In this document: positions 31,984 to 35,981 of the stretch, one piece after another | Numbering within the stretch: the stretch's first letter is position 1 | How the letters are laid out: each line of letters starts with the position of its first letter | Assembly (NCBI RefSeq): GCF_029265695.1 | Contig: NZ_JAJUHW010000030.1 | Span: 1 to 35,981 of the forward strand | From: Gracilinema caldarium | GTDB lineage: Bacteria > Spirochaetota > Spirochaetia > Treponematales > Breznakiellaceae | Direction: 5' to 3' | DNA: 35,981 nt | The notes under the pieces: model-generated | Seen by the model: the letters and a program-made list of their open reading frames with translations, nothing else | Told to the model about the DNA's origin: nothing | Databases searched by the model: none | Made by a program: the position numbers and the translations under genes

Positions 31984-32093
31984 CCGTTACTATTTGCTTC
32001 ACCTGCATGGCGTGAATTGGCACGTATTCTTGCAAACCTAAGGTGCAGCAAGAATCGTGACATAGCTGAGTCAAGTTGAAGCAGTTGTTAGAT
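31984..32093 (-). other. attC site A (degenerate outer core)
   Basis: On the minus strand the site starts with R'' ATCTAAC (32093-32087) and the left arm ACTGCTTCAAC, shares the GTCACG/AGAAT central stem with the other sites, and returns with GGTGAAGC. The expected outer core GTTRRRY is GTAACGG here, so recombination at this end is probably lost. The TAA of the preceding ORF lies inside R''. Confidence 0.7.
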
Positions 32094-32438: not shown

Positions 32439-32569
32439 ATCTAACGTACGCTTAACCGGTAACGCGTATATGGCGCGATTTTTGCCGAGGATCGTTCCCA
32501 ACGAAGTTCGGGCGTGACGACCGGCAAAAATCGTGACATGACCGAGTCAGGTTGAAGCGGTTGTTGAGC
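32439..32569 (-). other. attC site B
   Basis: 131 bp. On the minus strand R'' is GCTCAAC (32569-32563) and R' is GTTAGAT (32445-32439), both fitting the consensus. L'' CGCTTCAACC pairs with L' GGTTAAGCG, leaving one unpaired C in L'', which fixes the orientation as minus. The centre has a perfect 12-bp stem (CGATTTTTGCCG with CGGCAAAAATCG). Confidence 0.88.
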
Positions 32570-33202: not shown

Positions 33203-33333
33203 ACCTAACATTTCGCTTAACCTGCGAGGCGTAATAGCGCGATTCTTGTCATGGAGCGTTTCCAACGAAGTTGAGGCATGAAGACCAGCAAGAATCGTAA
33301 CATAGCCGAATCAGTTTGAATCGGTTGTTAGAT
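33203..33333 (-). other. attC site C
   Basis: 131 bp. Minus-strand R'' is ATCTAAC (33333-33327) and R' is GTTAGGT (33209-33203). Outer arms CGATTCAAACTG and CAGGTTAAGCG pair with an extra base on the left arm. CGATTCTTG and CAAGAATCG form the central stem. The TAA of the upstream cassette gene is inside R''. Confidence 0.88.
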
Positions 33334-34202: not shown

Positions 34203-34312
34203 ACCTAACATTCAGTTAACCCGCGAGGCGGCATGGTGTGCTTTTTTGTAGAGCGAAGCGACAAGCAAGTTTCGTGACAATAGCCGCGTCATGGTGGAAG
34301 CGATTGTTAGTT
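34203..34312 (-). other. attC site D
   Basis: 110 bp. Minus-strand R'' is AACTAAC (34312-34306, one mismatch to RYYYAAC) and R' is GTTAGGT (34209-34203). Left arm CGCTTCCACC faces GGTTAACTG with one extra base. The conserved TGACGCGGCTATTGTCACG block shared with the other sites is present. It begins 8 bp after the stop of the upstream gene. Confidence 0.85.
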
Positions 34313-34319
34313 GAAAAGA

Positions 34320-35420
34320 TTAGTCAATTATTGATATACGTTGTGCATCATTATTATTAAAAATTATATGTATAGTAGCCAATCTTCTTGAAGCCCAATC
34401 AGGGGTTTTGGGAGTTAAAGTATAAATTATTTCGCTTTTATTATTTGTTATTTTGACAACACCTGTAATAATATTTTTATGTTTATTAATATCTATTGAA
34501 AAAGTTGTTTCTGTTCCAGCAACACTAGACAAATATAATCCCGGTGAAAAGTTCATCACAAGGGTATCATTATTATTATCTTTTAAAAAATAATGAATAC
34601 TATTTATTATAATTTCATTTTTGTCTGCCGTAGCATGTATTAGACAATTATCGCCTCGGATAATAATCTGATTATTATCAATAGCTATTTTATACGAAAA
34701 TGTTTTTTCACCCAATTTATATATCAGAGCTTCATCATTGGTCAGAAGAATTGAACTTGTTAGAAAATAAATCGGATCGTTTGATGCGCGTATTATACCT
34801 ATTAAAAATGATTCTGAATAGTAACTTTTTAATGCTACAAAAAATGGTGCTTTATTAATTTCCACTGGAATATTCATTTCCTTATTATCAATGGTTAGTT
34901 TAACATTTTTACTTCCCAGGGTACTTTTTTCACGATACATTATTGGAAAAGAGGTATGTTCAGAGTGTCCTTCGGGATTAATTAAACCGCCATATTTCTC
35001 AGAAGGGTTACCAACACATTGAAAGAACCAAGATATCAGTTCTTTATCATTTGTAGTAAAATTAATTGTTATTTCTGGTTTCGCTTTTTTTGTATTTAAT
35101 TTACATTCTATTGGTGTAAATACAAGGTGTCGATTTTTTGATTCTTCTTTCATTGAAAGAAAGACATCTTCATTATTCAAATAATCTATTTGTGTTTTGT
35201 CTTTAAATGTCAGTATAATTCTAACATTATCTGTATCTTTAATCATCGCTTCAATGCATTCATATTTCTCATGATTTGTAAAATAACTGATTATGTGATA
35301 GTCATATTTTTCAAAATGGACGAAAAATGGATCTATCAGCGTGTTTCTCAAACTGATACCTTCTGAAAATGTTGTAATAGATAGACTAATAAACAATAAA
35401 ACCAATATTTTTGTTTTCAT
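34320..35420 (-). CDS. Exported protein of unknown function (integron cassette gene)
   Basis: A 366-aa protein with a signal peptide (MKTKILVLLFISLSITTFS, then EGISLRN), no lipobox and no other membrane segment, so it is probably periplasmic or outer-membrane associated. The mature part looks beta-rich, with many short hydrophobic strands and Asn/Lys/Ile-rich composition. I recognise no family; short stretches such as DDKEL-like TTNDKELISWFFQC and GGLINPEGHSEH may be conserved loops. I choose 35420 over the ATG at 35426 because the AAGGGGG site is then seven to eight bases away, while it almost touches the earlier ATG. The gene fills one cassette of about 1.26 kb (35466-34209). Confidence 0.7.
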   Translation of the reverse strand: MKTKILVLLFISLSITTFSEGISLRNTLIDPFFVHFEKYDYHIISYFTNHEKYECIEAMIKDTDNVRIILTFKDKTQIDYLNNEDVFLSMKEESKNRHLVFTPIECKLNTKKAKPEITINFTTNDKELISWFFQCVGNPSEKYGGLINPEGHSEHTSFPIMYREKSTLGSKNVKLTIDNKEMNIPVEINKAPFFVALKSYYSESFLIGIIRASNDPIYFLTSSILLTNDEALIYKLGEKTFSYKIAIDNNQIIIRGDNCLIHATADKNEIIINSIHYFLKDNNNDTLVMNFSPGLYLSSVAGTETTFSIDINKHKNIITGVVKITNNKSEIIYTLTPKTPDWASRRLATIHIIFNNNDAQRISIID

Positions 35421-35460
35421 ATTCATTCCCCCTTTCTTCTATATTGAGCGCGCAGCGTCA

Positions 35461-35563
35461 ATTTAACATGCGCATAACTGGCGAAGCTTGATTGGCGCTG
35501 TTTGTGCCATCAAATTGAAACGCACAAACCGTGACATAGCTGAGGCTAGTTGAAGCATTTGAT
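35461..35563 (-). other. attC site E (inner core R'' altered next to an IS end)
   Basis: Minus-strand R' is GTTAAAT (35467-35461), a consensus core. Arms TGCTTCAACTAGC and GCCAGTTATGCG pair with the usual extra base in the left arm, and the conserved GCTATGTCACG block is present. The R'' position reads GTATC where the sister sites have CTAAC. The IS110-like element starts within a few bases of it. Confidence 0.78.
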
Positions 35564-35564
35564 A

Positions 35565-35625
35565 CTCATAAAGGCCCTATAATAGTACTAACTACACTCA
35601 AACTATCAAGGAGGACCTTTATGAG
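35565..35625 (+). promoter_or_regulatory. Hairpin covering the transposase RBS and start, with an internal -10 box
   Basis: The right arm (35609-35625) includes the AAGGAGG ribosome-binding site and the ATG at 35621; the left arm lies upstream of TATAAT (35578-35583). A transcript entering from outside would fold and hide the site, while one started at the internal -10 would lack the left arm. No clear -35 box is seen. Confidence 0.5.
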
Positions 35626-35703
35626 ATTTTTTAAATAACAGCTCCAATTCTACATCGGAATAGACTTGCACGCAAGAACCATGTATGTCTGCGTTGGTGT
35701 GTA
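35621..35703 (+). pseudogene. IS110-family transposase, N-terminal fragment with in-frame stop
   Basis: The frame reads MRFFK, stop, then QLQFYIGIDLHARTMYVC and a terminal stop after VGV. GIDLHARTMYVC is the first DEDD strand of IS110/IS1111 transposases, with the first catalytic Asp. The stop at codon six (35636-35638) and the loss of the rest behind a second element show that it is dead. AAGGAGG sits eight bases before the ATG. Confidence 0.7.
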
Positions 35704-35710
35704 AATAGAC

Positions 35711-35977
35711 ATGGTACCCCCCTGGGTCTACCCCGATCCAACGGATACGGGAATTAGATCTACCGCACGGAAGTATGGGACGACGGTAAAGACGGTGAGG
35801 AAGTGGCTGCAGCGCTATGAGGCAGAAAAGAAAGCAGGGCTTATCGAACAAAGCCGTCGGCCCCACAGCAGTCCTAGAGCCACAAAGCCCTGGATACGCT
35901 TTAAGCTTAAACAAGCGGTAAAGGATCTGCAGCGGGCAGGCAAACGAAAGAGTGTAACGCGATTAAAGCAAGAATGA
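35711..35977 (+). pseudogene. IS481-like transposase, N-terminal helix-turn-helix fragment
   Basis: Eighty-eight residues are read before the stop near the window edge. GIRSTARKYGTTVKTVRKWLQRYEAE is a helix-turn-helix of the type that opens IS481/IS3-group transposases, followed by the basic GLIEQSRRPHSSPRATKP linker. The frame ends at VTRLKQE with TGA, where family members carry on into the integrase core; inserting one base there (QEL-R in place of QE-stop) would keep it open, so a frameshift is likely. No ribosome-binding site is seen before the ATG. The catalytic core would lie beyond the window, so this could alternatively be the first frame of a frameshifting transposase. Confidence 0.55.
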
Positions 35978-35981
35978 GAGC

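What the first reader, a model, noticed from the sequence alone, without database searches (positions are those of the whole stretch)
35461..35703. IS110/IS1111-type element sits at an attC site and its R'' box is altered
The remnant starts within a few bases of the position where attC E should have CTAAC but has GTATC. A subgroup of IS1111 elements (the IS1111-attC group) is known to insert specifically into attC sites, so this may be the same kind of targeting in a spirochaete array, and it may explain the lost R''.
Basis: partly seen in the sequence, partly recalled or inferred. Interest (0 to 1): 0.62.

Follow-up and report, generated by a model that had tools for sequence, protein, structure and literature searches.

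The report
Jumping gene aimed at integron sites
The fragment is the dead left end of a jumping gene that had landed precisely in the recombination site of an integron cassette, and related copies in several bacterial phyla sit at the same spot, so the damaged site is the insertion scar of an element that homes to these sites.

Summary
On the + strand attC E (35462-35561) ends ...AGCATTTG, and an IS left end (ATACTCATAAAGG, 35562 to about 35693) follows directly, with some 25 codons of an IS110-superfamily transposase (stop at codon 6); an IS481-like element then runs to the contig end. The box reads GTATC because the IS supplies TAT and the attC CAA; homologous attC sites mostly read TTG|TTA there. 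I compiled 26 distinct insertions of this transposase clade in four phyla: 21 in attC R'' boxes in one orientation (17 supported by calls, 4 by eye), 1 unclear, 4 elsewhere. Left flank is xTG in 26 of 26; right flank TTA in 16 of 16. The targeting idea is supported, but the target is a short linear TG^TTA. Membership of the IS1111-attC group is not shown: the transposase matches IS5075 (IS1111 family) at 23% over 120 aa, and end extensions are 8/6, not 7/3. Relatives also share a promoter across the circle junction, a left-end hairpin over the start codon, and candidate guide motifs in the 3' noncoding region.

The parts
35462..35561 (-). attC E (fifth attC of the array; cassettes read on the minus strand): R', L', loop, L'' and the CAA half of R''
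   Evidence: Sequence; folds as a closed attC when the usual TTA is put after TTG; 66-83% similar to attC sites in the window and in G001
35561..35565 (-). altered R'' box: GTATC where CTAAC is usual; the junction lies between 35561 and 35562
   Evidence: sibling sites 1, 3 and 4 read TTG|TTAG
35562..35693 (+). remnant of an IS110-superfamily element: left end, 5' UTR and first codons of tnp, orientation opposite to the cassettes
   Evidence: same left end at attC in L007, L008 and relatives
35565..35578 (+). left arm of the hairpin (sub-terminal repeat)
   Evidence: MFE -18.7 kcal/mol, pairs with 35610-35625
35608..35625 (+). Shine-Dalgarno and start codon of tnp, paired with the left end
35621..35695 (+). 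tnp 5' fragment (MRFFK*QLQFYIGIDLHARTMYVCV); TAA at 35636-35638; not functional
35694..35981 (+). IS481-like element interrupting the IS110 remnant, runs off the contig; ORF from 35711
   Evidence: Pfam PF13011, PF13518; its end recurs once at G000:C8:39244-39270
31987..32091 (-). sibling attC 1, TTG|TTAG present (far end degenerate)
32440..32568 (-). sibling attC 2 (box reads TTG|TTGAG)
33204..33331 (-). sibling attC 3, complete R''
34204..34310 (-). sibling attC 4, complete R''

Best explanation
A mobile element of the IS110 superfamily inserted, by its usual site-specific route, between CTAA and CAA of the R'' box of attC E (TTG^TTA on the other strand), with its transposase gene opposite to the cassettes. 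Its left end stayed joined to the attC body, so the box now reads TATCAA; the missing half would lie at the element's right end. Later the tnp gene got a stop and was interrupted by an IS481-like element, and the contig breaks there. Shown: exact junction, same junction in relatives, fixed orientation at attC sites, intact homologous sites. Inferred from relatives: the circle intermediate makes a junction promoter (TTGAC in the right end, GATACT completed by the left end); the left end masks the start codon in read-through RNA; an RNA from the 3' noncoding region finds the target by pairing to GTTAx.
For: Exact junction. Same left-end/attC junction in an unrelated Smithella contig and in G081. 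26 distinct left junctions (window and 25 relatives): 21 at attC R'', always with the left end against the attC body; left flank TTG in 23, ATG in 2, GTG in 1; right flank TTA in 16 of 16 right ends read. Complete boxes in homologous attC sites. Intact relatives carry PF01548 and PF02371. Junction promoter: TTGAC, spacer 17-18, GATACT/GATAAT/GAAAAT in 8 of 9. Hairpin: all 3 AUG bases pair with the left end in 12 of 13, 1 of 3 in the other.
Against: 4 of 25 relatives lie outside attC (L035, L037, L110, L124). The window copy lacks its right end and noncoding region, so its own guide and the other half of R'' cannot be seen. No strictly orthologous empty site was found: the same cassette ORF in G017 has no recognisable attC beside it. 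My first attC score discriminated poorly, and the fold test failed to separate L008, L017, L037 and L038 from controls. Insertions outside cassette arrays may be lost by selection, which would inflate the attC share.
Confidence: 0.92

Rival explanations
1. The element is a true member of the described IS1111-attC group (ISPst6, ISKpn4, ISPa21, ISPa25) in a spirochaete host.
For: Same kind of target (one end of attC), short left end and long 3' noncoding region, sub-terminal inverted repeats (group features from PMC11187229).
Against: Transposase 23% over 120 aa to IS5075, an IS1111 family member, and on a separate branch; end extensions 8 and 6 bp in 11 of 11 against 7 and 3 (or 6 and 3) stated for IS1111.
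Confidence: 0.12
2. The IS has no preference for attC as such; it uses any xTG^TTA, and copies survive mainly in cassette arrays because insertions there are harmless.
For: 4 off-attC copies; in the 3 of them whose right flank was read the joined target is xTG|TTA; only about 5 bases are near-invariant in the flanks.
Against: 21 of 26 at attC although TTGTTA is a common 6-mer (214 instances in 11 loci served as controls); the guide motif extends complementarity past TTA.
Confidence: 0.3
3. The altered R'' arose by point mutation and the IS remnant lies next to it by chance.
For: None found.
Against: The changed bases are the first bases of the IS left end in other attC insertions.
Confidence: 0.01
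4. Another attC-targeting element, such as a class C-attC group II intron (recalled; also named in PMC9229058, passage read), caused the scar.
For: Such introns insert at attC sites.
Against: The sequence at the scar encodes the start of an IS110-type transposase; Rfam found nothing in three relatives' loci.
Confidence: 0.01

Closest known systems
IS1111-attC group (ISPst6, ISKpn4, ISPa21, ISPa25; [quoted passage not shown]
   Same: IS110-superfamily transposase type, insertion at one end of attC in a fixed place, long NCR downstream of tnp, sub-terminal inverted repeats
ISGsu4-like IS110 elements (Paraburkholderia AP028202, P. aeruginosa NZ_CP093017 plasmids)
   Same: Nearest named transposases outside the clade, 33% over the full length
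   Different: The two loci read (L031, L033) show no attC at the ends, judged by eye
IS621 and ISCro4 (IS110 group, solved structures)
   Same: C-terminal transposase domain matches; RNA-guided recombination is established for IS621 (PMC11208160, passages)
   Different: The IS110 group carries its RNA in the left end; here the long noncoding region is on the right

Membership tests
IS110 superfamily (DEDD/RuvC transposase) | PF01548 and PF02371 domains | tested here: met
   Met in intact relatives L020 and L022, and NF033542 for L020; the window fragment itself is too short (0 Pfam families)
IS1111 family | Longer noncoding region downstream of tnp | tested here: met
   Right ends 451-572 nt in seven copies measured from the stop or close to it against 73-113 nt 5' of tnp in 12 relatives
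IS1111 family | Sub-terminal inverted repeats of 11-13 bp | tested here: inconclusive
   Present but uneven: perfect run 4-14 bp in 11 copies
IS1111 family | Terminal extensions 7 bp left, 3 bp right (or 6 and 3) | tested here: not met
   8 and 6 bp in 11 of 11 copies; definition from PMC11187229
IS1111 family | Transposase related over its full length to IS1111 members | tested here: not met
   Against IS5075: 23% over 120 aa only, separate branch; one reference member only
IS1111-attC group | Insertion at a fixed position and orientation in attC | tested here: met
   21 of 26 distinct sites at attC R'', one orientation
IS1111-attC group | Transposase groups with ISKpn4, ISPst6, ISPa21, ISPa25 | not testable with these tools
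   No sequence of these could be obtained; two plasmids guessed from memory showed none among the annotated features of the stretches read, and a tblastn with IS5075 named only IS5075 and IS4321 in the 60 rows shown
IS110 group in the narrow sense | Longer noncoding region upstream of tnp | tested here: not met
RNA-guided target choice (seekRNA or bridge RNA) | NCR segment complementary to the target that changes with the target | tested here: inconclusive
   xTAACT motif in the NCR; x complementary to the base after TTA in 12 of 15 copies for the first motif; Fisher p 0.026 on 14, not corrected for ancestry

The most novel reading that the evidence does not exclude
A lineage of IS110-type elements separate from the IS1111-attC group has independently come to target integron attC R'' boxes in at least four phyla. 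Its guide RNA follows the R'' type of the host integrons (CCTAAC against CATAAC), and its two ends double as a circle-only promoter and a lock on the transposase start codon.
Probability: 0.35. Interest if true: 0.72.

Novelty: new variant of a known kind. Interest (0 to 1): 0.5.

Why it matters
attC targeting by IS elements is known mainly from IS1111 members. Here a transposase clade only distantly related to the IS1111 member tested does the same at the R'' box, in spirochaetes and several other phyla. Many natural insertions with readable targets and noncoding regions make guide-target pairing in this branch directly testable, and the insertions break R'' and so may freeze cassettes. The window copy alone is a dead fragment.

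Tried and rejected
Pattern scans: the viral-contig hits L014-L016 and the spirochaete-side hits L009, L010 and L013 carry the pattern inside other sequence, not at an attC, judged by eye; another viral scan gave nothing. Blastn of plasmids with the remnant found nothing useful; E. coli genomes hold no similar DNA; phages hold one distant transposase. My first attC arm score did not work: only the window, L019 and L022 reached P of about 0.05 or less. The fold test (214 controls that include true attC sites) showed closed attC folds for the window, L007, L019, L021, L024, L041, L043 and L047; of these L019 was beaten by 16% of controls. L022 has a low z but an open box, L023 pairs only its inner arms, L008, L017, L020, L035, L037 and L038 gave no closed attC fold, and L049 could not be scored. 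For L021 the repeat hit does not reach the junction, so it rests on the fold. Searches of the flanks of L047 and L038 in their own genomes gave one partial hit and none besides themselves. Empty orthologous site: not found. ISKpn4 reference: not obtained. Rfam: no match in three loci. Papers: Tetu and Holmes 2008 is not held. Searches bearing on whether the clade is in print; none showed it, but the library lacks most subscription journals.

Full report
Observation. The cassette ORFs of this array lie on the minus strand, so attC sites are read on that strand; I describe junctions on the + strand, which is the IS orientation. attC E spans 35462-35561 and ends ...GTTGAAGCATTTG; the next base, 35562, starts ATACTCATAAAGGCCCTATAATAG. 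The transposase start codon is at 35621 behind AAGGAGGA; codon 6 is TAA; similarity to IS110 transposases stops near 35693, where an element with an IS481 leucine zipper and HTH begins and runs to the end of the contig at 35981. Sibling sites 1, 3 and 4 read TTG|TTAG and site 2 reads TTG|TTGAG.

Same junction elsewhere. A scan of the genome-contig collection (84,980 species) with a left-end pattern found one stretch, in a Smithella MAG, with attC...CCGTTG|ATACTCATAAAGGTCC. DNA similarity in 97 genomes found one case besides the window's own, in G081 of another family...AAGCAGTTG|ATACTCATAATAATCG plus a decayed transposase start. The 26-codon fragment found 14 plasmid records: Vibrio campbellii, Salinivibrio, Pseudoalteromonas, Alteromonas, Catenovulum and Candidatus Manganitrophus. 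I read loci from 11 of these 14 records and from one further Manganitrophus record. A profile of five of their transposases (A1) was run on 392 genomes of the phylum (10 with E<=1e-20) and 390 of the order (14 with E<=1e-24); many of these hits are more distant IS110 elements or pieces without a left end.

Counts. I took every copy of the clade whose left end I could read: 26 distinct sites, the window included. Merged as one site: L017, L018 and L032 (same flanks); L022 and L034; L035 and L036 (two further Alteromonas records of 145,308 bases and the second V. campbellii record were not read). Supported as attC by a call are 17: window, L007, L008, L019, L020, L021, L022, L024, L041, L043, L047, L049, L109, L112, L113, L117, L120. 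The support is a similar repeat in the array, or in another array, with TTG|TT at the junction, a closed fold, or arms identical to an intact site in G348. By eye only are 4: L023, L038, L111, L118. Unclear: L017. Outside attC are 4: L035 (inside an IS3-type transposase gene, by eye), L037, L110, L124. In the attC cases the left end abuts the attC body, so orientation is fixed. Left flank: TTG 23, ATG 2, GTG 1. Right flank: TTA in 16 of 16 (14 copies with both ends, 2 right ends alone).

Empty sites. Seven homologous attC rows in same-genus genome G001, 71-83% identical over the aligned part, read TTG|TTAG in 6 and TTG|TTC in 1. Of the ten hits shown for the window site (two in the window, eight in G001), eight read TTG|TTA, one TTG|TTC and one TTG|TTG. 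These are homologous sites, not the same locus: the 87% identical cassette ORF in G017 lies outside any recognisable attC.

Mechanism in relatives. Copies have 73-113 nt before tnp (12 relatives) and about 450-570 nt after it. The ends carry an inverted repeat starting 8 bp from the left and 6 bp from the right in all 11 copies compared. Joining right and left ends gives TTGAC, 17-18 bp, then GATACT, GATAAT or GAAAAT in 8 of 9; Catenovulum, with a duplicated right end, is the exception. RNA from outside the element should fold its left end over the Shine-Dalgarno region and the AUG: all three AUG bases pair with the left end in 12 of 13 copies and one in Manganitrophus; leaving out the first 12 nt, roughly what a junction-promoter transcript would lack, lowers the computed AUG pairing in 13 of 13, strongly in most, weakly in Pseudoalteromonas THAF3 and Manganitrophus; pairing of the Shine-Dalgarno region changes little. 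This suggests a switch that is on mainly in the circle; it is computed, not measured.

Guide. The downstream region of 15 of 16 copies examined has one or more xTAACT motifs. For the first, x is complementary to the base after TTA in 12 of 15; exceptions are V. campbellii, Salinivibrio and G591. Fisher p is 0.026 on 14 copies, without correction for ancestry. Gammaproteobacterial and Manganitrophus copies have CTAAC and mostly sit at GTTAGG; copies in genus g66 have CATAAC and mostly sit at GTTATG or GTTATA. That fits pairing of an RNA to the R'' box, as shown experimentally for IS1111 and IS110 elements in PMC11187229 (passages and section 9 read) and PMC11208160 (passages read), but is not proof.

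Classification. Intact relatives are IS110 superfamily. Within the plasmid set identity falls from 46-100% in the clade to about 31-35% for ISGsu4-like and other elements. IS5075 of the IS1111 family matches over 120 aa at 23% and branches elsewhere in a 16-row tree in which 7 of 13 inner branches are open. So the element works like the IS1111-attC group, but membership is not shown. PMC3607928 (passages read) mentions a few transposases in the T. succinifaciens integron and, in the passages seen, no attC targeting; PMC9229058 (passages read) found no IS interrupting attC in Shewanella.

Names. G handles carry no organism names.

Noticed in passing
35562-35625 and 12 relatives: The left end of the element pairs with the Shine-Dalgarno and start codon of its own transposase in all clades although the sequences differ, which looks like a lock against read-through translation.
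   Followed up: partly
right ends of L017, L019-L022, L035, L068, L070: TTGAC in the right end and GATACT completed by the left end form a promoter-like pair at 17-18 bp only in the circular form.
   Followed up: partly
G000 whole genome: No integron integrase at E<=1e-20 in this assembly although three same-genus genomes have one over the cut-off; it may lie beyond the broken contig end or be lost.
   Followed up: partly
35694-35981 and G000:C8:39244-39270: An IS481-like element interrupts the IS110 remnant; its end recurs once elsewhere as a solo end.
   Followed up: partly
L074 1521-2621 (G017) against window 34320-35426: The cassette ORF next to attC E has an 87% identical homologue in another genome with no recognisable attC beside it.
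   Followed up: no
L008 2100-2217: The attC of the Smithella contig is 71-77% similar to attC sites of this window and its genus, across phyla, suggesting shared cassettes.
   Followed up: no
L024, right end: The Catenovulum copy has a duplicated right end (GACCTCGGGGAGGCTCATATGTG twice).
   Followed up: no
L020 1568-2584: A second, different IS110-family transposase (grouping with IS5075 in the tree) lies just upstream of the attC-inserted one on plasmid pVIBHAR.
   Followed up: partly
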